A stretch of 22,767 bases of DNA from Clostridia bacterium. Its GTDB lineage: Bacteria; Bacillota; Clostridia; Lachnospirales; WQUN01. A program made the translations under genes and the position numbers. Where the stretch lies: contig BNUF01000022.1 in the NCBI GenBank assembly GCA_025997155.1, positions 1 through 22,767 on the forward strand, given 5' to 3'. A model generated the notes under the pieces. The model had not been told where the DNA came from. It saw only the letters and a list, made by a program, of their open reading frames with translations, and did not search any database. Below are positions 6,529 through 19,534 of this stretch, piece by piece (the first letter of the stretch is position 1; each line of letters opens with the position of its first letter).

Positions 6529-7461
6529 ATGTCTAAAATCGCAAACAGTTTGACAGAACTAATCGGCAAAACCCCGCTTTTGCAATTGCGGAGCTTTACC
6601 AAGGCGGAAAACTTAAACGCGAACATTATAGCTAAGCTCGAATATTTCAATCCGGCGGGAAGTGTCAAAGACCGTATTGCGCTCGCAATGATTGACGACG
6701 CGGAAAAAAGCGGCACACTCAAAAAAGATTCCGTAATCATCGAGCCGACAAGCGGAAACACGGGCATAGGGCTTGCGTCTGTCGCCGCGTCACGCGGATA
6801 CCGCATAATCCTCACAATGCCCGAGACAATGAGTGTCGAGCGGCGAAAACTCCTTGCGGCATACGGCGCGGAACTCGTTTTGACCGAGGGCGTGAAGGGT
6901 ATGAAGGGAGCAATCCAAAAGGCGGACGAACTCGCGAAATCCACGCCGAACTCGTTTGTCCCGGGGCAGTTTGTGAACCCGTCAAACCCGAGAATCCACC
7001 GCGAAACGACGGGTCCCGAGATTTGGGAGGACACCGACGGCAAAGTTGACTTTATCGTTTCGGGCGTCGGCACAGGCGGAACGGTTACGGGCGTCGGCGA
7101 ATTTCTGAAATCCAAAAACCCTGACATAAAAGTAATCGCGGTAGAACCCTTCGACTCGCCCGTTTTGTCCGAGGGAAAAGCGGGCCCGCACAAAATCCAG
7201 GGCATCGGCGCGGGTTTTGTCCCCGACACCCTCAACACCGACATTTACGACGAAATCATAAAAGTTAAAAACGACGACGCTTTCAAGATAGGGCGAAAAA
7301 TCGCCCGCGCCGAGGGTTTGCTTATCGGAATCTCGTCCGGCGCGGCTGTTTGGGCGGCGGTCGAAATCGCGAAACGCCCCGAAAACGCGGGCAAGAACAT
7401 TGTGGTAATTTTGCCTGACACGGGAGAACGCTACCTTTCGACGCCTTTATTTGAGAATTAA
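6529..7461 (+). CDS. cysK: cysteine synthase A (O-acetylserine sulfhydrylase)
   Basis: A pyridoxal-phosphate enzyme that makes cysteine from O-acetylserine and sulfide. The 310-residue length is standard. Motifs are the PLP lysine in NPAGSVKDR (Lys47), the substrate loop TSGNTG (74-79), the phosphate-binding GTGGT (181-185) and ISSGA (268-272) near the C-terminus. It ends in a normal GERYLST segment. The GGAGGGA ribosome binding site precedes the ATG. It is a single-gene unit under a consensus promoter. Its TAA (7459-7461) shares two bases with the TAA of the convergent gene, so neither transcript has a terminator between the two genes. Confidence 0.96.
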
Positions 7462-8171
7462 GGTTCATAAAAAGACGTAACTCCGTCATAGTATTCGACG
7501 CTTAGGTTTAGTATAATTTGAAAATAGGAGGCGGGGACATATGTTACCCCGTCTTTGTTTTCGGCCTTGACACCGAGGTTTATGCTTTTGCCGCCGTCTT
7601 TGTAGCTAGCGCTGCCTGTTTCGATAACGCTTAGTTTTTTGTCCGCGTCATATACATATATTTTGCCGTCCGCCCACGTGAAGGTTTTAGCCGCTCCCGC
7701 GTTTGCGGTGTAGGTGTAGCCTAGTTTTTGGAGATTGCTTGCGAGCGGCACAAGCCCGTCAAGGATTTTGGCAAGTTCCTCCGCTTTATCCTTTTTGTAA
7801 TCCTCTTCGGTAGCTTCTTTTTTCGTGCGTTTATCTATATAGTATGTTTTTTTATGTTCCGTTTTCATCGAGTCGCTGTGGGGGTAGGCGGTTATATGTA
7901 CCGTTACCGCCGAAATGTAATTATCTTGCTCGATTTCATATTCAACCTTCGCGTCAATTCCGTCAATAAGTTCTTCGTCTAAAAGGTACTTAAGGTCGTC
8001 GGCAATTTTTCGGTTTAGCCCGTCCGCCCCCGTAAGGAGAGGGTAGCTCCCGAGAGTTAAACCTTGGTAAATATACGGAGTGTCCTTGAACTCCAGACGC
8101 CCCGTGTAAAACGCCATACCCGAAAACAGGAACATAAGCCCAAGGACGGCGGCGGCAATTTTATTTTTCAT
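7458..8171 (-). CDS. secreted or anchored stalk-domain protein, smaller paralogue
   Basis: A 237-residue protein with a hydrophobic N-terminus (about 5-21) that acts as signal peptide or membrane anchor. The middle (about 32-125), with YPLLTG and [18 protein letters not shown], resembles the extracellular DUF3298/DUF4163-type domain of anti-sigma and deacetylase-associated proteins. The C-terminus (about 160-237), with [20 protein letters not shown] and YVPASYF, resembles the copper amine oxidase N-terminal ('stalk') domain, common in Firmicutes cell-surface proteins. It is clearly paralogous to the gene just upstream. No enzymatic residues can be named and the function is unknown. AGGAG lies about nine bases before the ATG, fused to the end of a terminator. 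No promoter fits in the 47-base gap, so it probably depends on readthrough. Confidence 0.75.
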
Positions 8172-8186
8172 AATAAATACTCCTAT

Positions 8187-8216
8187 AAAAAAGCGGAGGT
8201 TTTTGCCCCCGCTTTT
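8187..8216 (-). terminator. intercistronic Rho-independent terminator between the stalk-protein paralogues
   Basis: On the minus strand the arms AAAAGCGG and CCGCTTTT, plus two more G-C pairs after one mismatch, enclose a six-base loop, and six T residues follow directly. The stem begins two bases after the stop codon of the larger paralogue. The T-tract is followed within a few bases by the AGGAG of the smaller paralogue. It should reduce expression of the second gene relative to the first. Confidence 0.8.
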
Positions 8217-8218
8217 GA

Positions 8219-9115
8219 TTATTCGGCGTTCGGTACAGAGAAAGAAGTGATTTCATCGCCGTCAAGATTTACGTCAAGGTTCAAAATTTGGTTAAAATAA
8301 GAAGCGGGAACGTATACGCTGCCGTTCTGGTTTTCGGCGCGAACACCAAGGTCGGTGTCTTTGCCGTTCGCCTTGTACTTCGATTGCCCAACCGTAATAA
8401 CGCTTAAGTTTTTGTCAGGGTCGTAAACGTTGACTTTGCCCGACGCGCCCACCCACGTAAAGGTTTTCGCGTCGCCGACATTACCGCTGCCCTCAGCGAC
8501 ATATTTGTAACCAAGGGTTTTAAGCGTGCTTGCGAGCGGCGTAAGTCTGTTTAAAATTTCGTTGACTTGCTCCGTCGTGAGTTCTTTGTCGTCGGTCGTC
8601 GGGGCTGTCGCGTCGTCGTTTTTTTCTTCCTCCGCCGCCGTAAGCGCCTCTAAGCCCGCTTTGTAAGCGTCTTCAGAAACTTCTGTGTTAGAACTTTTGT
8701 CTACATAGTAAGTTTTTACCTGTTCAACTTTGTTCAGCCCGCTTGTCGAGTTTGCGACTGTGGTAACCGTTATCGTGGAATAAACCCCGTCGTCTCCGTC
8801 GCTAACCGAATTTGAAACTGTCGCGTCGATACCCTCTGTTGTGTCCAGAGATGTTATTAAGAATTCTTTGATATCAGCGGTGATTTTATCATTGAGTGAG
8901 CCTACGCCTGAAATTACAGGGTAGTCGCCGACAGCCACGCCTTCGTAAACGAACGTTGACGTTGTGTAGCTCAAGCTGCCGTAATCTTTCTTGTCCGCCG
9001 TCGTGGTTTTTGTGACAGTCGCCGTCGTGTCATCGTCAGCAAATACTGTACTCATCGCCGAAAACGTAAGCGCAAGACCCGCCGCTATCGCAGCAATTCT
9101 TTTTGCGTTTTTCAT
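8219..9115 (-). CDS. secreted stalk-domain protein, larger paralogue
   Basis: A 298-residue protein with a clear Sec signal peptide (about 1-26, likely cut after VFA, before DDD). It shares the two-part architecture of its downstream paralogue: an N-terminal DUF3298/DUF4163-like region with YPVISG and YYVDKSSNTEVSEDAYK, and a C-terminal copper-amine-oxidase-type stalk domain with YVPASYF. It differs by a threonine/aspartate-rich segment after the signal (27-45) and an acidic low-complexity insert (about 162-186), probably flexible linkers. It is expected to be exported to the cell surface. GGGAGGG precedes the ATG, and a promoter is visible about 80-100 bases upstream. The domain calls rest on recognisable motifs only, and no catalytic role is claimed. 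Confidence 0.75.
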   Translation of the reverse strand: MKNAKRIAAIAAGLALTFSAMSTVFADDDTTATVTKTTTADKKDYGSLSYTTSTFVYEGVAVGDYPVISGVGSLNDKITADIKEFLITSLDTTEGIDATVSNSVSDGDDGVYSTITVTTVANSTSGLNKVEQVKTYYVDKSSNTEVSEDAYKAGLEALTAAEEEKNDDATAPTTDDKELTTEQVNEILNRLTPLASTLKTLGYKYVAEGSGNVGDAKTFTWVGASGKVNVYDPDKNLSVITVGQSKYKANGKDTDLGVRAENQNGSVYVPASYFNQILNLDVNLDGDEITSFSVPNAE

Positions 9116-9345: not shown

Positions 9346-9741
9346 ATGAAAAAAGAGAGACTTCTTATCTTAGAACTGCTTGCGGACGGCAAAATTTCAG
9401 CCGACGAAGCGGCGCGGCTTTTGGATTCGCTCAAAAGAGACGCTCGCGAGTGGGACTGCGACGACGCGAACGAAAAAATAAAGGACTTCTCGCGGTCGGT
9501 TGAAGGATTCGCGAAAGATTTCAGCGCGAAACTCGAAACTTCCTTCAAAATCGCCGAGCCGAAACTCCGCAAAACGACAAAAATAGCTCTTGAGAAAACC
9601 GCGCAGGTGATTGACAACATTTCCAAATCTCTCAACGAAAGTATAAGAAATTTTGAGGCGCAAGAGGCGGCACGCGCCGAAGCCGAACAAAAAGAAGATG
9701 TTTTCGGCGAAAAACCGGACGACGCTCCCCGCGAAAACTAA
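9346..9741 (+). CDS. small protein with SHOCT-like N-terminal helix-hairpin and helical tail
   Basis: The ATG at 9346 is chosen because GGAGG lies just before it; an upstream ATG at 9319 has no such site. The 131-residue product opens with MKKERLLILELLADGKIS followed by ADEAARLLDSL. This is the SHOCT-like helical pair found at the N-terminus of YvlB/DUF4097-type proteins and thought to mediate oligomerisation. The DUF4097 beta-helix that often follows is missing. Instead there is a charged, probably coiled-coil stretch (about 40-115) ending in an acidic tail. There is no signal peptide, so it is probably cytoplasmic. Its TAA shares two bases with the stop of the convergent HAD gene. The function is unknown; stress-envelope roles of YvlB relatives suggest one but do not prove it. 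Confidence 0.75.
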   Translation: MKKERLLILELLADGKISADEAARLLDSLKRDAREWDCDDANEKIKDFSRSVEGFAKDFSAKLETSFKIAEPKLRKTTKIALEKTAQVIDNISKSLNESIRNFEAQEAARAEAEQKEDVFGEKPDDAPREN

Positions 9742-10439
9742 TATTTCATAATCGTATTAAGCACGAATTCCGCGAAACTGTCCGAATCCGCAAAAACAAA
9801 ATTTTCAGAGGTGAACGGAAAATTTTGCGGAACGAGAGCTATATCGGCAATCAGAAGCATACTCAAGTCCATTACGCTGTCGCCGGCGCAAATCAGTTTT
9901 TCGCCTTGCGACAGTTTTTTTAGTGCTGTGCCTTTGTTTACGGATTTTGGAACTATATAGATTTTCTCATACAGACTTGTTATATCATAAACGGACTTAT
10001 CGACAAATTTATCCAACCTTCTAAGAGCGGCAGCGATGTCTTTACTTTTGGTAAATATATAAACCTCGTCAACAAGGCGCGTGTCAAGGATATTGTCATT
10101 TTTTAGTTTTTCGATATAAAAATCCAATTCGGCGCGGTTTACGCTATTCTTCGCGTCCTCGTGCCATTTTTTGTCAATTTCGCCATTGCGTAAAAGCGCC
10201 GCGCCGTTGCTTGTGATTGCGTATTCGGGCGTTCCCGTGCGGAGCAGTTTCACCCTCTCGTATTGCTCGAGCGAACGCGTCGTCACGGGAACAAACGAGA
10301 CCCCCTGAAGCATTTCATAAGCCAAAGGCGGCATAAACGACAGCTCCCGCCCGTCTTTGCGTTCGACGCATATATCTCCGTCCTTTTTGTGCTTATACGA
10401 GTGAATCAAAGTGTTGTCTAAATCGGTGGCGAAGAGCAT
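9738..10439 (-). CDS. HAD-superfamily hydrolase of the ter biosynthetic operon
   Basis: A 233-residue soluble hydrolase with the HAD motifs in order: the nucleophile motif DLDNTL (6-11), motif II threonines VTTRS (52-56), a lysine near NKGTAL (about 169) and the metal-binding GDSVMD (186-191). The segment between motifs II and III (about 65-165) is a Cof-type C2 cap. HAD enzymes of this kind dephosphorylate small metabolites. As the last gene of the ter operon, its likely role, by inference from published Ter-system genomics, is to remove a phosphate from a nucleotide-like intermediate. AGGAG overlaps the stop of the StiP gene upstream; the gap is eight bases. It ends tail-to-tail with the SHOCT-like gene and has no terminator of its own. 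Confidence 0.85.
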   Translation of the reverse strand: MLFATDLDNTLIHSYKHKKDGDICVERKDGRELSFMPPLAYEMLQGVSFVPVTTRSLEQYERVKLLRTGTPEYAITSNGAALLRNGEIDKKWHEDAKNSVNRAELDFYIEKLKNDNILDTRLVDEVYIFTKSKDIAAALRRLDKFVDKSVYDITSLYEKIYIVPKSVNKGTALKKLSQGEKLICAGDSVMDLSMLLIADIALVPQNFPFTSENFVFADSDSFAEFVLNTIMKY

Positions 10440-10447
10440 ATTTTCTC

Positions 10448-11497
10448 CTACAAATCGGCAATGTTTTTTATAATACCAACGGCGCGGTAATTCCGAAGAG
10501 GATACCGAACAACCCGCACGCCCTTGTCTTCCGCCAGTTTCACTATATGCGCGACAAATTTTTCTTCCGCGTTCTCCGCAATCAGCACAACCTCGGGAAC
10601 GCGCCGCAGAAGTACCCGCGTCGTTTCGCCGACGCTCGGTTTTATCAAATTTATGTTTCCTATCCCAAAATCTTCCGCGATTTCGGCAGTCTCCACAATC
10701 CCGTTGTAAAGTGCTATTTCGTCCGCCTCAAGCAATGTTTTATAATCGAACAAACTCTCCGTGCGGGAGATAAACTCATACGTCATATCCCGCAGCTCGC
10801 CGTACACCATTGCGCCGTGAAAATCAGTATCCGCGATTATGTCGCGCCGATAAAAGGTGCGGCTGATAAGCCCGCTTACCGTGCAGTTCAGGCACGAACT
10901 CGCGATAAGAAAATCCTCGTGAGTCCCGCAAAGCGGCGTAATCCCCGCTGGGTCGCAAATCACGGCAAGTTCCGGGCTTAGCCCCGCGTAACGCGCCGTT
11001 TCTTTCGCGAGTTCGCCCGATATCGCTCCCTTGCCCGTCCAGCCGTCCACAAACTGTATGTTTTCGGGGTTGTGCCGCTCCAAAACGTACTTAACCGCGT
11101 TGTTGTCAATCCCCATTCCGCGAATTATTGACAAGGCATAATGAGCCGCGTTTATTTTATACTTATTGTACAAGTATCGTTTAATCAAAACCCCGACTGT
11201 AATGCCCGCCCGCGCCAGCGACACAAGCACAACGTTCTTTCCTTTTTTTGCCAAAATCTTCTCCGCCACAGTCTGAACCGCAAACGCCGTAATCCGCGAA
11301 AAATTGTCAAGGGCGTAAACATACTCCTCAAAATACGCCTCGGACGGAGTGTACTCAATCGGCAGCATCTCACAGTAAGAAACGCCGCTTTGTATAAGCC
11401 TCTCGCGTTCCTCCGCGGGTTGCGGCTCGACCAGCCCCGTTATATCCTTAAGCAACAATGTTACATCATTTTCCAAAAACGCGCTGTTAGTAATCAT
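10448..11497 (-). CDS. StiP-family protein with C-terminal Pelota-like RNA-binding domain
   Basis: The start is set at the ATG at 11497, which overlaps the previous gene's stop as ATGA and has GGGAG upstream; a TTG at 11509 is less likely. The 349-residue protein matches the family called StiP (predicted cysteine protease, also annotated as PRTase_1) in ter operons. SYCEMLPIEYTPS (40-52) holds a candidate nucleophile, Cys42. SLARAGITVG (93-102) and FVDGWTGKG (149-157) resemble phosphoribosyltransferase loops. The C-terminal part (about 262-349), with VVLIAENAEEKFVAHIVKLA, looks like the Pelota/L7Ae-type RNA-binding domain attached to these proteins. Whether it is a protease or a transferase has not been settled to my knowledge. 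Its place between the PRTase-TRSP and HAD genes fits the proposed ter nucleoside pathway. Confidence 0.85.
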   Translation of the reverse strand: MITNSAFLENDVTLLLKDITGLVEPQPAEERERLIQSGVSYCEMLPIEYTPSEAYFEEYVYALDNFSRITAFAVQTVAEKILAKKGKNVVLVSLARAGITVGVLIKRYLYNKYKINAAHYALSIIRGMGIDNNAVKYVLERHNPENIQFVDGWTGKGAISGELAKETARYAGLSPELAVICDPAGITPLCGTHEDFLIASSCLNCTVSGLISRTFYRRDIIADTDFHGAMVYGELRDMTYEFISRTESLFDYKTLLEADEIALYNGIVETAEIAEDFGIGNINLIKPSVGETTRVLLRRVPEVVLIAENAEEKFVAHIVKLAEDKGVRVVRYPLRNYRAVGIIKNIADL

Positions 11498-12588
11498 CGT
11501 AACTCCCAACTATATATCGTTATATTTGTGTTCCCTGCCGATTGTAACGCCCCGCACAAATCGCAAAGTCCGCGTTTTCCCTCTTTCGCGTCCGTCACGA
11601 TTACCACATTGTCATATTTTGCCAAATTGTATATATAAGTCTTTCGCTCCCCGTCATAGCAACTCCGCAAGACATACCGCGAAAACAACGGATACCCGCG
11701 CTCGGAACAGGGCAAAATCGGGCTTCTGGTAGTCGCCTGAAACTTCACGTCCCCGCCGATATTTTTCGCGAGCAACAGCGCGGGATACATAAATTCTTCC
11801 GTTCCCACCACCAGAACGCTCCCCGAAATATTATCAATAAATAACTCTTTGCAAGCACACAGATAGTCCGCAAAAACAACCCCTTCACGCGGATTTTTCA
11901 TACCTCCTATATGACGAATCTCGGCATTTTCGGCGGGGACATATTCCGTATCCTTATTAAAATTACTATAAGCATCAGCCTTTTTCGCTAAATTTATATC
12001 ATTTAATTTATACAAATAGTAGTACGACACGCCGAATTTGATTTCGTTGCTCGCCCCAAATCCGTTCACCAAAGACGCAACCGAAATTTTAACGTCTTCC
12101 CGCAAAAGCGGTTTCAGCGCGGCAAGGAAATTATTTATAGTTTTCCCTGTCGTTACCTCATCTTCCACAAAGACAATCCTGTCAAATTTTGTAAAATCCC
12201 CGTCTCTTGAGTACAGAGCTTGGTTCACCGCGTGGGAATGTTCCTCCTTGAACGTGACAATTTCCAGAGCCTTAACCTCCTCTCTTGTTGTATGATAATA
12301 TGTACTGTTAGGAATACAAGACGCGACACCCGCCCCGATAGCCGTCGCCGTCTCCGCGAACCCGATAACGACGACATTCTCTCCAATGCAATCCTCCGCG
12401 ACAAGCCGCCCCAACTCCTCAAAATATTTCAGGGTGTCGGCGGGGTCGCAGGGGAAATGTTTCCCTTGCCGTTTATTCACAATCAAATATGTTCGTTTAG
12501 TATTGTTTTCCCGCCGCGCCAACGCTAACGAAGAAGTATCGGCATCTCCGCAAATGTCACTAACTGTTCTGTTTTCGTCAAACTCCAC
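11494..12588 (-). CDS. phosphoribosyltransferase with C-terminal TRSP domain
   Basis: A 364-residue protein. The N-terminal half is an orotate-PRTase-like domain, with the PRPP-binding signature RIVFVEDEVTTGKT (137-150) and a core starting near TYLIVNKRQGKHFP. The C-terminal half contains TTRSP (286-290), the motif that names the TRSP domain found behind this transferase in ter operons. It presumably attaches or removes a base on phosphoribose; the substrate is unknown. The listed start is a GTG at 12588, with only a weak GGGA site, giving an unusually long 64-base overlap with the ATP-grasp gene. A TTG within the first 25 codons is an alternative start. The stop overlaps the StiP start by four bases. 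Confidence 0.87.
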   Translation of the reverse strand: MEFDENRTVSDICGDADTSSLALARRENNTKRTYLIVNKRQGKHFPCDPADTLKYFEELGRLVAEDCIGENVVVIGFAETATAIGAGVASCIPNSTYYHTTREEVKALEIVTFKEEHSHAVNQALYSRDGDFTKFDRIVFVEDEVTTGKTINNFLAALKPLLREDVKISVASLVNGFGASNEIKFGVSYYYLYKLNDINLAKKADAYSNFNKDTEYVPAENAEIRHIGGMKNPREGVVFADYLCACKELFIDNISGSVLVVGTEEFMYPALLLAKNIGGDVKFQATTRSPILPCSERGYPLFSRYVLRSCYDGERKTYIYNLAKYDNVVIVTDAKEGKRGLCDLCGALQSAGNTNITIYSWELR

Positions 12589-13481
12589 GAAACATCATTC
12601 CCAATCAATTTATTTATCGCGACAAGCGGGATATTCACACACGCCGCCGCTAAATGCAACCCGCCCGACATACGCGTGTTTATCTCAAGAAGATACAGTT
12701 TGCCCTTGTCATACCTAAACTGAATGTTACAAGGACATTGCAGCCCAGAGATATCCAAAATCTTGCCGCACAAATCAACGACAGTCTCGTCAAAAAAAAT
12801 CTTCTCGACGCGTCCGTACATTTTTTTGCGCGGGATAATGATATTGCCTCGGCTTGTCGCAAGGCAGTCCGCGCTGATTTCGTCGCCGCTCAAATATTGC
12901 ATTACTAAAAGTTTCGGGAAGGTATCCCCCAAAAGTTCCAAAAGTTCCCCGTACTGTAATCGGTAGCGACTCCGCGTCAGCGTCCTAGGCGCGTTATCGA
13001 TAATCCGAAAACTCTGCGCCCCTTCGTCTAGCGCAAACTTCACACAAAGCGGCAAAAACTTAAGATACTTATAGATTGCCTCGAACTCCGCCGCACTCGT
13101 AACGCAATTAAACATTGGCAAACAGCCCAACCCTTTGTTACGAAAAAAATCATACGTCCGCACTTTATCCGCGAATATCGACACCTTTTCATAATCGTCC
13201 GCCAAAACCCTTACGCCGATTTTTGCAAATTTCGCCAAATTCCGCGAAATATCCGCAAGCCCGCGTTTCGGCACAAAAACCTCAACCTTGTTGCGCGTAC
13301 AAAAATCAAGGCAAAAATCCACATATTCCTCGCCCTCTAATTCAGGCTCGACCTCGGTGTGGGCGCAAAGGGGCTTGTATGTAAACTCCTCGTTCGCGTT
13401 GCTTCCTATTATATACATTCCTTTAAGCTCCGAAATAATGAAGTACGCCGCGCTGAACCAGTGATTAAACCAAATCCGCAT
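12525..13481 (-). CDS. ATP-grasp enzyme of the ter operon
   Basis: A 318-residue ligase-fold protein. The start is placed at the ATG at 13481, because MRIWFNHWFSAAY is the usual beginning of this family; an ATG at 13493 adds four residues. Family marks are an ATP-contacting lysine in CVKFALDEGAQSFR (Lys148), MQYLSGDEISADC (194-206), and the Mg-ATP-binding LLEINTRMSGG (264-274) with Glu266 and Asn268. ATP-grasp enzymes join a carboxylate, activated as acyl phosphate, to an amine or thiol. Here it would ligate a building block in the proposed nucleoside-like product; the actual substrates are unknown. The gene overlaps the lyase upstream by about 17 bases and the PRTase downstream by up to 64, indicating strict translational coupling. 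Confidence 0.87.
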   Translation of the reverse strand: MRIWFNHWFSAAYFIISELKGMYIIGSNANEEFTYKPLCAHTEVEPELEGEEYVDFCLDFCTRNKVEVFVPKRGLADISRNLAKFAKIGVRVLADDYEKVSIFADKVRTYDFFRNKGLGCLPMFNCVTSAAEFEAIYKYLKFLPLCVKFALDEGAQSFRIIDNAPRTLTRSRYRLQYGELLELLGDTFPKLLVMQYLSGDEISADCLATSRGNIIIPRKKMYGRVEKIFFDETVVDLCGKILDISGLQCPCNIQFRYDKGKLYLLEINTRMSGGLHLAAACVNIPLVAINKLIGNDVSWSLTKTEQLVTFAEMPILLR

Positions 13482-14436
13482 CACGCACCCCATAAATGGA
13501 AGCGAGGAGCAAAATTTTCCTCGCCCATTTTTCGTGAACTTTAACTTCGTTCATTCTCATTCCGCAGTAGCTTTTTTCAACGCCCGCGTCTTTGTTCGTC
13601 CAATTTTTGATGGTGAGAGCGTCCTGATAGTCGTTGTTCGACACCTTAAGGCTTTCCTGAATCGGAGCAATCTGCGAGGGGTGGATTGCGGTTTTCCCGA
13701 TAAATCCGTTGAGGCGGTCGAGTTCAAGTTCCCGTTTAAGCCCGTCAAGCCAGTCGTCCGACGTTTCGTTTTGAAAGTATTCCCAAACGGGTGCGGACAC
13801 GACATAATCCCCCGAAAAGACGTTCAGGATATCGCTTATCACGCTGTTTATCACGGAAATGTCATAAATTGTCTGGTTAATATTGCGCCGAATCGCGAAA
13901 AGGTTACAAAAATCGTTCCCCCCGACACGCACATTAAGCACCAAATCCCGCACATTGTCAATAATTCCCTTGAGTTCCGCCAAAACGGCGGCGCGGTTCT
14001 CAAGCCCGATTATACCGTCATTTTCCAAAATCGGCATAACGAACATATTATTCCCGGAAATTGTATTAATCTCATAGGTCACCGTCTTATAATCGGCGGC
14101 GTTCGCCAGACTGAATTTCGGCAGCACAAACCCGCTTACAATTTCCGCCAAATCCTCGAGTTTTGAGAAAATTTTCGACATATGTAACGGCGTGCGTATC
14201 CGTATAAAAATAAGGGGTAAATCCGCGGCGGCTGCCGCCTTGATTTCCCTAAGTGTATCAAAAAGCTGCTTTTCCGCGACTTTAATAGGCACGTCGCCGA
14301 TTGCGTCCTCCAGACAAAGCGCGACCGAATTCGGGCGAAACTCGCCCGAAATCAGTTTTTGCGCGATAGTCTTGTTGGTTGCGGGCGTGTACATTAACGC
14401 GCCAAGGCTGTAACTTAAAAATTCTTTTTGTTCCAT
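13465..14436 (-). CDS. TIM-barrel C-C bond lyase (HpcH/HpaI aldolase, citrate-lyase-beta type)
   Basis: A 323-residue enzyme related to citrate lyase beta chain and HpcH/HpaI aldolases. The ATG at 14436 is preferred over a TTG at 14451 that would overlap terD. Visible motifs include LGALMYTPA near the N-terminus (11-19), CLEDAIGDVP (41-50), the barrel arginine in IRIRTP (78-83), a Glu in MPILENDG (about 138) that may help bind Mg, VGGNDF (171-176) and GKTAIHPSQI (247-256). This lyase subtype is a known member of ter operons ('C-C bond lyase'). It presumably makes or breaks a carbon-carbon bond in the metabolite handled by the ATP-grasp and transferase genes behind it. The substrate is unknown. 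It starts five bases after the terD stop. Confidence 0.85.
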   Translation of the reverse strand: MEQKEFLSYSLGALMYTPATNKTIAQKLISGEFRPNSVALCLEDAIGDVPIKVAEKQLFDTLREIKAAAAADLPLIFIRIRTPLHMSKIFSKLEDLAEIVSGFVLPKFSLANAADYKTVTYEINTISGNNMFVMPILENDGIIGLENRAAVLAELKGIIDNVRDLVLNVRVGGNDFCNLFAIRRNINQTIYDISVINSVISDILNVFSGDYVVSAPVWEYFQNETSDDWLDGLKRELELDRLNGFIGKTAIHPSQIAPIQESLKVSNNDYQDALTIKNWTNKDAGVEKSYCGMRMNEVKVHEKWARKILLLASIYGVRDADLV

Positions 14437-14440
14437 ATTG

Positions 14441-15019
14441 TTAAACGTCAACCCCGAAATTCTGGCACAACGCCCCTAACCCGCCGCTGAATCCGTTGCC
14501 GATAGCGTTGAACTTCCACTCCGTGCCGTTTCGGTAGAGTTCCGCCACAACGACCGCCGTCTGAATCGAAAAATCTTCGCCGAGGTCATATCGGATAAGC
14601 TCCGCGCCGCTCGTCTCGTCCACAATACGTATAAACGCGTTCGACACCTGCCCGAAATTTTGGTTACGCGCCTCCGCGTCGTTGATTGTCACCGTGAAAT
14701 CGATTTTTTGTACGGTTGCGGGGATTAACGGCAATTCGACTTTGATTTGCTCGTCGTCGCCGTCGCCCGCTCCCGTGAGGTTGTCGCCCGAATGGATAAC
14801 GGAATTTGACTGGTGCGTTTTGTTGTTGTAGAAAATAAAATCGGACTCAGACGCGACTTTGCCGTTTTCGCCCAGAAGAAACGCCGCCGCGTCAAGGTCA
14901 AAGTCTTTCCCGCCGTCATATTTGTTCGTGTCCCAGCCAAGCCCCACGACAATTTTTGTAAGCCCCGGGTTCGTTTTTGTCAAATCCACTTTTTGCCCTT
15001 TTTGTAAGCTGACTGCCAT
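14441..15019 (-). CDS. terD: TerD-family calcium-binding stress protein (copy 1)
   Basis: A 192-residue protein of the TerD family, originally linked to tellurite resistance. These are cytoplasmic beta-sandwich proteins that bind calcium. Diagnostic segments are [13 protein letters not shown] at the N-terminus, [18 protein letters not shown] (26-43) and the acidic [13 protein letters not shown] (78-90) that holds calcium ligands. [20 protein letters not shown] near the C-terminus is also typical. AAGGAGG precedes the ATG. It is the last of three terD-type genes in a row, 24 bases after the second. It is closest in sequence to copy 2. The gene sits at the junction between the calcium half and the enzyme half of the operon. 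Confidence 0.95.
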
Positions 15020-15043
15020 TTTTTGTCCTCCTTATACGCCTGA

Positions 15044-15628
15044 TTATACGCTAACGCCGTAATCGCGGCAAAGCGCGTCAAGCCCGCCTTTGTAACCCGA
15101 ACCGAGAGCGTTAAATTTCCAGTCGCTACCGTGTTTGTATATTTCGCAAACGACAACCGCCGTCTCAACGGAATAGTCCTCAACGAGGTCATAGCGTATA
15201 GATTCCACGCCGACCATATCCGTGTCGTTTGCGCGGCTCGCAACGCGTACATACGAGTTGGACACCTGCCCGAAATTTTGCACGCGGTTAACCGCGTCAT
15301 AAATCGTGACGGTTATGGCAATTTTTTCCACGTCTGGCGGCACTTTCGAGAAATTGATTAGGATAACCTCGTCGTCGCCGTCGCCCGCCCCCGTGAGGTT
15401 GTCGCCCGTGTGAATCACCGCGTCTCCTCGGCTCTTGAGGTTGTTGTAGAAAATGAAATCGTTGTCGCCTTTCACCTTGCCGTTCGCTCCAAGTAAAAAC
15501 GCCGAAACGTCAAGGTCGAAGTCTTTCCCGCCGTCATACTTGTTCGTGTCCCAGCCGAGCCCCACAAGCGCCAGGTTCATTGTCTTGTCAAGCGTTACGC
15601 GTTGTCCTTTTGATAAATTTACTCCCAT
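15044..15628 (-). CDS. terD: TerD-family calcium-binding stress protein (copy 2)
   Basis: The start is the ATG at 15628 ([13 protein letters not shown]), preceded by CAGGAGGG; the frame stays open 93 bases further upstream but that would overlap copy 3. The 194-residue product has [18 protein letters not shown] (23-40) and [13 protein letters not shown] (75-87), the same calcium-binding segments as copy 1. Compared with copy 1 it carries a short insertion, [12 protein letters not shown] (about 146-157), before the IRYDL segment. Seventeen bases separate it from copy 3. Several TerD-family members often occur together in such operons and may form mixed assemblies, but that is inference. Confidence 0.95.
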
Positions 15629-15645
15629 AAAGCCCTCCTGTATTT

Positions 15646-16224
15646 TTAAAGTCCATACCTGTGCGCGAGTTCGCCGATTCCGGCGTCCTGCGTTCCCTGC
15701 CCGATTGCGCTGAACTTCCACTCGCCGCCGTGGCGGTAGAGTTCGCCGAAAATCATCGCCGTAAGCCCGCCGTAATTTTCGGAAAGATTATATTTAAGAA
15801 GTTCCGTGTTTGTGGACGCGTCAACGATACGTATAAACGCGTTTTCGATAAGCCCGAAATGCTGCCTGCGTTCTTGCGCCTTGTAAATATTTACCACAAA
15901 CACGATTTTCTCGTAATTCGCGGGAATAAGCGGCAAATCCACGGTGATTTGTTCGTCGTCGCCGTCGCCCGCCCCCGTGAGGTTGTCGCCTTGGTGGTTT
16001 ACCGCGCCGTTTTTGTGCCGAAGGTTCCCGAAATACACAACGTCGTCTTTTGAGTAGACCTTTTCGCCCGGTCCGCAGAGAATCGCGGACGCGTCGCAGT
16101 CAATCGCGCCGCCCTTGTTGAGTTTGCTCGCCTCGTCCCAGCCCAAACCGATGATAATCCGTTTAAGCCCCGCGTTGCCCTTAGTCAAATCGACTTTTTG
16201 TCCCTTTTGCAAATTTACAGACAT
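15646..16224 (-). CDS. TerD-family protein, divergent copy (copy 3)
   Basis: A 192-residue TerD-family protein and the most divergent of the three. It has the family start [13 protein letters not shown] and the calcium segment [13 protein letters not shown] (79-91). [18 protein letters not shown] is replaced by [19 protein letters not shown], which keeps the D-x-D pair but loses other acidic positions and adds a cysteine. The C-terminus ends [10 protein letters not shown], unlike copies 1 and 2. It may be a TerX/TerE-like member with altered calcium affinity. The ATG follows the ATPase stop by a single base (TAATATG), with GAGGCG inside the end of the ATPase gene, so it is translated together with the pump. 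Confidence 0.92.
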
Positions 16225-16225
16225 A

Positions 16226-18868
16226 TTACGCCTCTTTTCTCACAAGTAATTTTCTTAAAATATCAACGGGTATTATAATTATAGCACTCAAAATTACAGC
16301 CGTCCACTCGACAGCGTTAAGCCCATAGGAACGCAGAACCGCGCCGCCGCAGTAAGTCATAATAATCTGGATAAGGGCGATTGCCCCCATAACTTTCAGG
16401 AAGCCTGTATTTTTTGTGATATTGTCGAATAGGTTAATCTTGTCCGTGCGGGCGTTGAACGCGTTGAACACGGAGGCGAATATGAAGAAGGAGAAGTAGC
16501 CCGTGAGTATATATTTATCGTGGTCGCCGACGGGTTGGCGGAAAACCGCCTCAAACGCACCCGAGAACAGGAACATTATGCTAAGCGCGAAAATCAGGAA
16601 ACTTCCCGTAAAAATGGCGCTCCACATATACCCGCTCACAATATTTTCGTCGCGTGTTTTCGGTTTTTCGCGCATAAACCGCGCAAGGGCGGGTTCGCCG
16701 CCGAACGCTAATGCCGCGAGTGTGTCCATAACAAGGTTTACCCAGAGTATCTGCGTAATCGACAGCGGGTTTTCCATACCCATAATCGGCGCGGCGAACG
16801 AAATCAAAACCGCCGCCACGTTGATTGTAAGCTGAAACACGATAAACTTTCGGATACTGTTGAAAATCGTGCGTCCGTAGAGGATTGCCTTGTCGATTGA
16901 GTTGAAGTTGTCGTCAAGGATTACTATGTCGCCCGCCTCTTTCGCGACTTCCGTGCCGCCGCCCATGGCGAATCCCACGTCGGCTTTTTTGAGGGCGGGG
17001 GAGTCGTTCACGCCGTCGCCCGTCATACCGACGACAAGGTTCATATCCTGCGCAATCCGCACGAGACGGCTTTTGTCGCTGGGAAGAGCGCGTGAGATAA
17101 CGCGGATATTCGGCAAAATTTCCTTGACTTTATCGTCGGACAGGTCTTGCAGCTCGTCCGAGGTGAGGACGATATCGCCGACTTCTTTAAGAAGTCCCGC
17201 GTCTTTCGCGATTGCGACGGCGGTGTCTTTTCGGTCGCCCGTAATCATAACTACCTGTACGCCCGCGTTTTGCACCTCCGCGATGGCCGTAACCGATTCT
17301 TCGCGAACCTCGTCACGGATACCGATAATCCCCACAAGGGTAAAACTCCCCGCGGGCAGCGCGTTATCCTGTATTGCCGTGTCCGCCGTGGCGAACGCGA
17401 GAACGCGGATTGCCCTCCCCGCAAGGGTATTTATCTTTTCTTCTATCAAGTCTTTGTTTTTTGAGAAATCCTTTACCTTGCCGTCTTTGTCGTAATAGGA
17501 CGTGCAGCGCGAAAGGATTTTTTCGGGCGCACCCTTGACTAGCGTCAGGTTGTAGTCGCCCGTGATTTGCGACACGGAGTATTTGTTTTCGCTGTTGAAA
17601 GGGATATTGTCGCCGACGCTCACGCCAAAATCCTTGCTTTTCCCCGCGACATAGCCTAAAACGGCGCGGTCGGTGGCGTTGCCGCCGAGGATTTTTATGT
17701 TGCCTCCCTCTTTTGAAACGACGGAGCTTGTGTTTTTCTCGATACTAAGGGCGAGTAAATCGGCGAGTTTGCTATTCGGTTCGAATTTTGCCGATTCGTT
17801 TCCGTCTCCGTCCGCGAAAATCACCGCTTCGAGTTTGCCTTTTGTGATTGTACCCGTTTTGTCGCTAAATAATATGTTCAGACTTCCCGCCGTCTCGATT
17901 CCCGCAATTTTACGCACAAGCACGTTATCTTTAAGCATTTTGCCCATATTAAGCGCGGACACAATCGCAATCATAAGGGGCAAGCCCTCCGGAACCGCCA
18001 TAACTATAATGATTACGGCAAGCATAACCGCGTCCACAAGGTCTTTCGCCACAATCGAAAAATCGTAACCCGACACGCTGTAGGTGAAGATGATTTTTTG
18101 AACCATATAAACAACGGCAATAGCCGAACCGCCGATATAGCCGAATTTGCTGATTCCCCCCGCGAGCGTCGACAGTTTCACCTTAAGCGGCGAGTCCCTG
18201 TCCTCGGTCTGCTGGAGTTCCCCCGCGATTTTGCCGTAGGTGCTCTTGTCGCCGACGACAGTCACGCGCATCACGCAGTTGCCCGAGCAAACCACAGTCC
18301 CGCGAAACACCGAAAACTCGTCCAAAAAGTCGATTTTCGCCTCGGGGTCTAGTTTGTAGTCCGCGGGCGCGGCTTTTTTCCCCGCCTCCTTGCTTTCGCC
18401 GTTTAACACGGATTGGTCGACCTTGATATTTCCCGAAAAAAGAACGCCGTCAGCGGGGATTTTGTCGCCCGACTGGAGGAGAATGTAATCGCCGACGACA
18501 ACGTCGTCAATCGAGATTTCCGATATAATGCCTCCTCTGTATACCTTGCACTTAATCCTTGACGCTTCTTCCTGAAGTTTTTGGAACGCGTTTTCGTTTC
18601 GGTATTCTGAAAATGTCGATACGAACGTTGCTAAAAGTACGGCGAGTGCGATACCCACCGATTCAAACCATTCCGCCTTACCCAAAATGGCGAAGACGAC
18701 GTTTATAATCAGCGCGACGCACAAGATTTTTATCATCGGGTCGCCGAAATTCCCCTTCAGCTTGTCCCAAAAACTTTCGACTTCGCTTTCGCTCAAGAGG
18801 TTTGAGCCGTATTTCGTGCGGGACTCAACGACTTCTTTATCAGTCAGCCCCGAAATTATTGTATCCAT
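16226..18868 (-). CDS. calcium-translocating P-type ATPase, P2B (PMCA) type
   Basis: The start is the ATG at 18868, which follows GGAGG by eight bases; an upstream extension to 18928 has no such site. The 880-residue integral membrane pump carries the phosphorylated aspartate in DKTGT (336-340), LNGES (155-159) as the actuator-domain loop (normally TGES), KGAPE (445-449) in the nucleotide-binding domain, and TGDGVND (616-622). The ion pathway shows VPEGLP in M4 (292-297), QLTINVAAV in M5 and LWVNLVMDTLAAL in M6. The Glu, Asn and Asp pattern indicates a single-site P2B pump rather than SERCA. It should export calcium from the cytoplasm. It heads the operon, directly before three TerD genes, so calcium removal and calcium binding are co-expressed. 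The long C-terminal autoinhibitory tail of animal pumps is absent, as expected. Confidence 0.93.
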   Translation of the reverse strand: MDTIISGLTDKEVVESRTKYGSNLLSESEVESFWDKLKGNFGDPMIKILCVALIINVVFAILGKAEWFESVGIALAVLLATFVSTFSEYRNENAFQKLQEEASRIKCKVYRGGIISEISIDDVVVGDYILLQSGDKIPADGVLFSGNIKVDQSVLNGESKEAGKKAAPADYKLDPEAKIDFLDEFSVFRGTVVCSGNCVMRVTVVGDKSTYGKIAGELQQTEDRDSPLKVKLSTLAGGISKFGYIGGSAIAVVYMVQKIIFTYSVSGYDFSIVAKDLVDAVMLAVIIIVMAVPEGLPLMIAIVSALNMGKMLKDNVLVRKIAGIETAGSLNILFSDKTGTITKGKLEAVIFADGDGNESAKFEPNSKLADLLALSIEKNTSSVVSKEGGNIKILGGNATDRAVLGYVAGKSKDFGVSVGDNIPFNSENKYSVSQITGDYNLTLVKGAPEKILSRCTSYYDKDGKVKDFSKNKDLIEEKINTLAGRAIRVLAFATADTAIQDNALPAGSFTLVGIIGIRDEVREESVTAIAEVQNAGVQVVMITGDRKDTAVAIAKDAGLLKEVGDIVLTSDELQDLSDDKVKEILPNIRVISRALPSDKSRLVRIAQDMNLVVGMTGDGVNDSPALKKADVGFAMGGGTEVAKEAGDIVILDDNFNSIDKAILYGRTIFNSIRKFIVFQLTINVAAVLISFAAPIMGMENPLSITQILWVNLVMDTLAALAFGGEPALARFMREKPKTRDENIVSGYMWSAIFTGSFLIFALSIMFLFSGAFEAVFRQPVGDHDKYILTGYFSFFIFASVFNAFNARTDKINLFDNITKNTGFLKVMGAIALIQIIMTYCGGAVLRSYGLNAVEWTAVILSAIIIIPVDILRKLLVRKEA

Positions 18869-18985: not shown

Positions 18986-19534
18986 TTAGAGTCCTCTTTG
19001 TATGTGTTTTTCGTATACCATTAAATACAGCGAGATGAGATAGGAGCTAACGATTACCGATACGATTTCTTCGCCAAGGCGCGGCATCAGGTAGACAAGA
19101 AACGCCTTATGTGTGAACCCGAAAACATATCTGAACAGAAAAGTGTTCACCGTCGTAAAAAATAGGCAGACGGGCGCGGATACAATCAGTATCCGAACGA
19201 ACCGCCCGAACGGCAATTTGTCGCGCAGCCGAAACCACGAAAACCCGACAAGGGCGTTTTTGACGACCTCAACAATCGTGAGCGGGAGCAGATACGCCCC
19301 CGTGGGTTTTAGCAGATACCCCACAACGTCCTCAAGCCCGCCCGCGATTCCGCCGTACAACGGCCCCAAGAGTATCGCCGTAAACCGAGTGAACCCCGAC
19401 GGAAACCCGATTCGCAGTATCGGCGCGCCCACTATGTCGAGGGTTTGGCTCGAAACCAGCTTCACCACCGCCGCCATAGCGACAAACAGGGCGGTTATCG
19501 CGATTTTGCGCGTTGCCGTCATTTGTGAGTTCAT
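18986..19534 (-). CDS. ECF transporter substrate-binding (S) component, FolT-like
   Basis: A 182-residue hydrophobic protein with about six predicted membrane segments. RIGFPSGFTRFTAILLGPLY followed by GGIAGGLEDVVGYLLKPTGAY matches folate-type S components of energy-coupling-factor vitamin transporters, which bind the vitamin and pair with a shared EcfA-EcfA'-EcfT module. No EcfA or EcfT gene lies nearby, so it would be a group II transporter using a module encoded elsewhere. Folate is the best guess from motif resemblance, but substrate prediction for S components is unreliable. GAAGGAGC precedes the ATG, and a near-consensus promoter lies about 30 bases upstream, leaving no room for the tetrahydrofolate riboswitch often found before folT. 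Confidence 0.75.
   Translation of the reverse strand: MNSQMTATRKIAITALFVAMAAVVKLVSSQTLDIVGAPILRIGFPSGFTRFTAILLGPLYGGIAGGLEDVVGYLLKPTGAYLLPLTIVEVVKNALVGFSWFRLRDKLPFGRFVRILIVSAPVCLFFTTVNTFLFRYVFGFTHKAFLVYLMPRLGEEIVSVIVSSYLISLYLMVYEKHIQRGL

What the first reader, a model, noticed from the sequence alone, without database searches (positions are those of the whole stretch)
9738..18868. Nine-gene operon joining a calcium pump, three TerD proteins and a nucleoside-type biosynthetic set
All nine genes are on one strand with gaps of at most about 25 bases or with overlaps. Ter-dependent systems with TerD, C-C lyase, ATP-grasp, PRTase-TRSP, StiP-Pelota and HAD were described by comparative genomics, which proposed a nucleoside-like product. 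Here the head gene is a P2B calcium ATPase, and TerC, TelA, TerB and vWA-type TerY/TerF are not in the window. That suggests a variant in which calcium efflux replaces the membrane TerC module, and in which the metabolite could be a calcium-linked stress signal. The pathway product remains unidentified.
Basis: partly seen in the sequence, partly recalled or inferred. Interest (0 to 1): 0.72.

Follow-up and report, generated by a model that had tools for sequence, protein, structure and literature searches.

The report
Ter stress operon with calcium pump
A Clostridia-type bacterium carries a nine-gene stress operon in which a predicted calcium-exporting pump sits where other bacteria have the membrane protein TerC, next to TerD proteins and enzymes thought to make an unknown nucleoside-like compound.

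Summary
Nine same-strand genes at 9738-18868 encode a PMCA-type (P2B) Ca2+-ATPase, three TerDs, C-C lyase, ATP-grasp, PRTase-TRSP, StiP-PELOTA and HAD. It is not unique: of 80 related loci, 63 hold TerD and 47 of those hold the pump within 3.5 kb; pump-TerDs-lyase is colinear in 29 of 80. TelA lies beside the same genes in 21 of the 47, so its absence here is incidental. TerC is in 1 of 80 loci, and that one lacks the pump. In a phylum sample, one stretch from each of 23 other genomes with TerD, 10 have the pump, 8 TerC, 0 both, 5 neither. On enzyme trees pump and TerC change places three or four times at least. TerD-linked pumps group apart from 22 unlinked paralogues of the same genomes. So: a clostridial variant of the known Ter-dependent system, with a dedicated Ca2+ pump in the TerC slot. 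Ca2+ dependence and product are untested. 'StiP cysteine protease' is better read as a PyrR-like PRTase fold fused to an L7Ae-like domain.

The parts
16226..18868 (-). P2B (PMCA-type) Ca2+-ATPase, 880 aa
   Evidence: TIGR01517 613 bits over cut-off 507; DKTGT, PEGLP, TM6 N and D kept, no Glu in TM5; best PDB relatives Ca-ATPase 8 plasma membrane-type, PMCA1 and lmo0841
15646..16224 (-). TerD paralogue a
   Evidence: PF02342 258 bits
15044..15628 (-). TerD paralogue b
   Evidence: PF02342 245 bits; ATG at 15628 behind GGAGG
14441..15019 (-). TerD paralogue c
   Evidence: PF02342 284 bits; PDB relatives 3ibz and 2kxt/2kxv
13465..14451 (-). C-C bond lyase, TIM barrel (CitE/HpcH-like)
   Evidence: PF15617 337 bits; 4102 relatives at E 0.001 or better
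12525..13493 (-). ATP-grasp ligase (ATPgrasp_Ter)
   Evidence: PF15632 104 bits; detected in 17 of 80 related loci with a profile seeded from this gene, perhaps an undercount
11494..12588 (-). Phosphoribosyltransferase with TRSP domain
   Evidence: PF15609 147 bits, PF12500 86 bits
10448..11509 (-). StiP-PELOTA: phosphoribosyltransferase-fold domain plus L7Ae-like domain
9738..10439 (-). HAD-IIB family phosphatase
   Evidence: PF08282/PF05116; D6-L7-D8 conserved in at least 95% of 80

Best explanation
This is a clostridial version of the known Ter-dependent stress system in which a dedicated P2B Ca2+-ATPase fills the membrane slot held by TerC in other lineages. Shown: the gene set, its recurrence, the alternation of pump and TerC at otherwise similar loci, and the separate grouping of the TerD-linked pump. 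Inferred: the pump lowers cytosolic Ca2+; TerDs, whose relatives bind Ca2+ (recalled), sit near the inner membrane and read or buffer that Ca2+; the lyase, ATP-grasp, two phosphoribosyltransferase-fold proteins and HAD phosphatase make a small nucleoside-like compound, perhaps under control of Ca2+-loaded TerD; the L7Ae-like domain of StiP may bind RNA.
For: 47 of 63 TerD-holding loci (of 80 lyase loci) have the pump within 3.5 kb of TerD; none of these has TerC. Phylum sample, one stretch from each of 23 other genomes: pump 10, TerC 8, both 0, neither 5; hypergeometric P 0.0026, not corrected for kinship; the 8 TerCs upheld by Pfam and by a clean profile. Position: TerD3-TerC-lyase in L296, L297, L303 against TelA-TerDs-pump-(PRT)-lyase in 9 of 80. 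At least 3 pump/TerC changes on a lyase+StiP tree of 95 rows, 4 on one of 96 rows; L116 (Ruminobacter MAG) nests among pump-type enzyme sets yet sits with TerC. Pseudomonadota stretches with TerD: TerC in 3 of 3, pump in 0; one of the 3 is L116 again. Pump tree: 60 linked rows fall together (support 94) with 3 rows labelled unlinked, one of which also has TerD beside it; 22 unlinked paralogues, two from the window's own genome, fall outside. An Alkaliphilus plasmid carries the same partners.
Against: TerC is rare in this lineage in any case (5 of 96 relatives over cut-off), so its absence is weak evidence. Pump or TerC type follows taxonomic family in the phylum sample (7 pump and 5 TerC families, none with both), so independent events are few; the trees are FastTree with long branches. 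16 of the 63 TerD loci have no pump within 3.5 kb: in 6 of these a TerD lies within 500 bases of the end of the held sequence, L119 has one just beyond the limit, the rest lack it. Five of 23 phylum stretches have neither. Some genomes hold both a TerD-pump locus and a TerC elsewhere: G078, G102, G153. The pump-TerD pair also occurs without a lyase in the fetched stretch (L150-L152, L154), and in Allobaculum lyase and pump-TerD lie far apart, so coupling to the enzymes may be loose. There are no transport, binding or product data.
Confidence: 0.62

Rival explanations
1. The pump is only a second stress gene that often travels in the same operon for co-expression; it does not stand in for TerC, and TerC was simply lost in these Clostridia.
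For: TerC is over cut-off in only 5 of 96 relatives and matched in 3 of 80 genomes holding the locus; 17 of 80 lyase loci have no TerD in the held stretch; 5 of 23 phylum stretches have neither pump nor TerC.
Against: Pump and TerC take the same place and share no fetched TerD stretch, and the linked pumps form their own group.
Confidence: 0.25
2. The pump exports Mn2+ (or Mn2+ and Ca2+), like TerC, so the operon handles manganese rather than calcium.
For: [quoted passage not shown] subtilis (PMC10550928, passages seen); that paper's reference list names a Mn2+/Ca2+ ATPase under a Mn riboswitch in Streptococcus (title only).
Against: PMCA-type equivalog over cut-off; PEGLP and the TM6 Asn and Asp in 60 of 60 linked pumps; no yybP-ykoY riboswitch at gathering score in 9 other pump loci searched, nor in the window at E up to 1. 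Sequence alone cannot exclude Mn2+.
Confidence: 0.2
3. A plain tellurite or metal resistance operon without a signalling metabolite; the enzymes detoxify or recycle nucleotides.
For: Family names only.
Against: Lyase, PRTase, StiP and HAD recur together (of 80: PRTase 70, StiP 73, HAD 60), which fits a pathway better; nothing seen here points to tellurite chemistry.
Confidence: 0.12

Closest known systems
Ter-dependent stress response systems (Anantharaman, Iyer and Aravind 2012, not readable here; recap seen in passages of PMC7824862)
   Same: TerD plus a PRTase/HAD biosynthetic module; lyase, ATP-grasp and PELOTA as recalled from the 2012 abstract
   Different: The recap names TerC as the membrane part; here a P2B Ca2+-ATPase, and no TerC or TelA in the genome
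Enterobacterial ter genes plus biosynthetic genes (Klebsiella grimontii plasmid)
   Same: ATP-grasp, PRTase, StiP, lyase and TerD genes annotated
   Different: Two divergent runs of genes, TerB and TerC present, vWA and PP2C genes, no P-type ATPase annotated in the 31 kb shown
Bacillus subtilis yceCDE-meeF operon (PMC10550928, passages)
   Same: TerD-type genes (yceCDE, as recalled) beside a membrane metal exporter
   Different: Exporter is TerC (MeeF); lyase/PRTase module absent there (recalled)
P2B Ca2+-ATPases: PMCA, plant plasma-membrane type 8, lmo0841
   Same: Whole-length similarity and P2B residues
   Different: Encoded with TerDs; groups apart from unlinked pumps of the same genomes
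Alkaliphilus sp. B6464 plasmid locus
   Same: Lyase-PRTase-StiP-HAD-TerD-TerD-AIM24-P-type ATPase on one strand, apart from one small opposite gene
   Different: Pump at the 3' end; no ATP-grasp annotated in the run; plasmid-borne

Membership tests
Ter-dependent stress response system (filed as a variant) | TerD domain proteins | tested here: met
   Three, 245-284 bits
Ter-dependent stress response system (filed as a variant) | Biosynthetic module: C-C lyase, ATP-grasp, PRTase-TRSP, StiP-PELOTA, HAD | tested here: met
   All five present
Ter-dependent stress response system (filed as a variant) | TerC membrane partner (usual part; not taken as defining, since the recap also speaks of abbreviated Ter operons) | tested here: not met
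   No PF03741 match in the genome, 77% complete
Ter-dependent stress response system (filed as a variant) | TelA (usual part; not taken as defining) | tested here: not met
   No PF05816 match in the genome; beside the same genes in 21 of 47 related loci
Ter-dependent stress response system (filed as a variant) | TerB and vWA/TerY | not tested
   Not seen among the 19 window genes scanned; genome not searched; vWA, PP2C and kinase genes near the pump in some relatives
Ter-dependent stress response system (filed as a variant) | Nucleoside-like product | not testable with these tools
   Needs metabolite analysis
P2B (PMCA-type) Ca2+-ATPase | Equivalog score and Ca2+ site residues with no TM5 Glu | tested here: met
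   TIGR01517 613 against 507; PEGLP, N, D in 60 of 60 and TM5 Ala in 59 of 60 linked pumps; residue roles recalled
P2B (PMCA-type) Ca2+-ATPase | Ca2+ transport | not testable with these tools
   Needs a transport assay
StiP cysteine protease | Invariant catalytic Cys | tested here: not met
   Best Cys column 83 of 90
Type I phosphoribosyltransferase (StiP N-terminal part) | PRTase fold and PRPP-type motif | tested here: met

The most novel reading that the evidence does not exclude
Ter systems have one membrane slot for a divalent-cation exporter, filled by TerC in some lineages and by a Ter-dedicated P2B Ca2+-ATPase in others, and TerDs act as the Ca2+-sensing partners of the exporter, much as calmodulin does for PMCA, linking Ca2+ to production of the nucleoside-like compound.
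Probability: 0.25. Interest if true: 0.75.

Novelty: new variant of a known kind. Interest (0 to 1): 0.55.

Why it matters
The core function of Ter systems is still called unclear in recent papers (PMC12054061, passages). If a Ca2+ pump and TerC swap in one locus, cation export rather than tellurite chemistry would be the shared membrane function, and the TerDs gain a direct partner. That makes the role of TerD testable in harmless Clostridia. It also corrects the reading of StiP from protease to a PRTase-fold protein with an RNA-binding-type domain.

Tried and rejected
Mn riboswitch by the pump: none at gathering score in 15 loci searched (9 pump loci, 4 TerC-type loci, and L043 and L249), nor in the window at E up to 1, where the only match was a chance-like snoRNA. 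Phage-borne origin: the lyase profile found one relative in viral contigs and the lyase one phage record, so not a common phage system; the pump matched 130 phage records, all under 60% identity, the best listed 49%. A published link of TerD and a Ca2+-ATPase: ten paper searches, whose listings were partly capped (for example 20 of 921), listed none that I recognised apart from PMC12363816, where huge phages carry terD genes and a Ca2+-ATPase gene in separate transcription units (passages). The 2012 founding paper is not held, so I cannot say that the link is unpublished. The first TerC profile used some wrong-strand seeds; a clean one gave the same result and Pfam upheld the 8 Bacillota TerCs of the phylum sample. 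L249, first flagged as TerC plus pump, has a 650-aa P-type ATPase without the Cation_ATPase N and C domains, so another kind. The ECF S-component gene at 18986-19534 lies upstream on the same strand; with a 117-base gap and a promoter-like site between I left it out of the operon.
Full report
What is there. The window comes from a MAG 77% complete in 502 contigs; a same-family genome, G011, holds a contig of the same length as, and the same gene run as, the record 'Clostridiales bacterium Rs511_bin10' (L063), hence 'Clostridia-type'. Nine minus-strand genes run from a P2B Ca2+-ATPase (start 18868) to a HAD phosphatase (end 9738), with gaps of 1-24 bases or overlaps. The genome has no TerC and no TelA match and a fourth TerD elsewhere, beside an AIM24 gene.

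Is it unique? No. Scanned with profiles, 63 of 80 hold TerD; the pump lies within 3.5 kb of TerD in 47 of these 63; TelA is close by in 21 of the 47 and TerC in none. The window's order, pump-TerDs-lyase on one strand, occurs in 29 of 80, and TelA-TerDs-pump-(PRTase)-lyase in 9 of 80. Of the 16 TerD loci with no pump within 3.5 kb, six have a TerD within 500 bases of the end of the held sequence, and L119 has the pump just beyond the limit. The nearest relative, L063, has the same order without a detected ATP-grasp. ATP-grasp was found in 17 of 80 with a profile seeded from the window's gene, so this may be an undercount.

Pump or TerC. TerC matched in 2 of 36 and 1 of 44 whole genomes that hold these loci, but it is rare in this lineage anyway (over cut-off in 5 of 96 relatives). 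The locus-level pattern is stronger. Of 398 genomes of the phylum, 24 have TerD, the window's included. One stretch was fetched from each of the 23 others, not every TerD place in them: pump in 10, TerC in 8, both in 0, neither in 5, one of these a TerD fragment. Chance of no overlap is 0.0026 without correction for kinship; type follows taxonomic family (7 pump, 5 TerC families, none with both), so the true weight is less. Two of these stretches repeat loci of the first sample. Six-frame fragments and a clean TerC profile gave the same split, and Pfam upheld these 8 TerCs. On a lyase+StiP tree of 95 loci pump and TerC change at least three times, on one of 96 loci four times; the Ruminobacter set L116 nests among pump-type sets but sits beside TerC. 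In Pseudomonadota, 5 of 299 genomes had a strong full-length lyase match; of six lyase stretches fetched, the three with TerD all had TerC, none had a pump, and one of them is L116 again. Exclusion holds per locus, not per genome: G078, G102 and G153 have a TerD-pump locus and a TerC elsewhere.

The pump. On a tree of 88 ATPases, 60 TerD-linked pumps fall together with 3 rows labelled unlinked, one of which (L211) proved to have TerD beside it; support is 94. 22 unlinked paralogues of the same genomes, two of them from the window's genome, fall outside; 3 others are distant. Linked pumps keep DKTGT, PEGLP and the TM6 Asn and Asp in 60 of 60 and have Ala in 59 of 60 where the unlinked ones mostly have Glu in TM5, the P2B pattern with one Ca2+ site (residue roles recalled). 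The unlinked set is limited to matches from 25 genomes.

Relatives of the locus. YceG (mostly with TelA), AIM24, and kinase, PP2C and vWA genes recur near the same genes among 132 scanned stretches, so the window is a short form. A plasmid of Alkaliphilus carries the set with a P-type ATPase, and a Klebsiella grimontii plasmid carries the TerC form.

How it may work. Inferred, not shown: stress raises cytosolic Ca2+; the pump exports it; TerDs bind Ca2+ near the membrane and tie the state to the enzyme half, whose product is unknown. The published recap of the Ter model (PMC7824862, passages) lists nucleotide-type synthesis, TerD/TerB sensing, TerC in the membrane and TelA below it; the passages I saw mention no pump. 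TerC proteins have Mn efflux activity in B. subtilis (PMC10550928, passages) and terC gives Zn and Mn resistance in Klebsiella (PMC12054061, passages). C. difficile raises synthesis of two TerDs under metronidazole (PMC6262375, passages).

Verdict. Observation confirmed; interpretation half right: the pump does seem to stand in for TerC, while missing TelA and TerY are incidental. It is a new variant of a known kind, and a common one.

Noticed in passing
window 10448-11509: StiP, named a cysteine protease in Pfam and in plasmid annotation, lacks an invariant Cys and has a PyrR/HGPRT-type fold plus an L7Ae-like domain.
   Followed up: yes
L116: A Ruminobacter (Pseudomonadota) MAG holds an enzyme set nested among Clostridia sets on the tree, but beside TerC instead of the pump: likely transfer with exchange of the membrane part, or a binning error.
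   Followed up: partly
L299 4369-12095: Very divergent PRTase, StiP and HAD (77, 77 and 41 bits) beside TerDs and a divergent pump, no lyase found: perhaps a further variant.
   Followed up: no
L146 9007-10500: The window genome's fourth TerD lies next to an AIM24 gene.
   Followed up: partly
window 7458-9115: Two tandem proteins with a copper amine oxidase N-like domain, related to each other; the clustering found no relative in the other scanned neighbourhoods.
   Followed up: no
window 18986-19534: ECF transporter S-component gene just upstream of the pump on the same strand.
   Followed up: partly
L249 2863-8777: TerC and a 650-aa P-type ATPase of another kind on one strand without TerD.
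   Followed up: partly
L128 5606-6226: A rhomboid-type membrane protein; its cluster recurs in 13 of the scanned loci.
   Followed up: no
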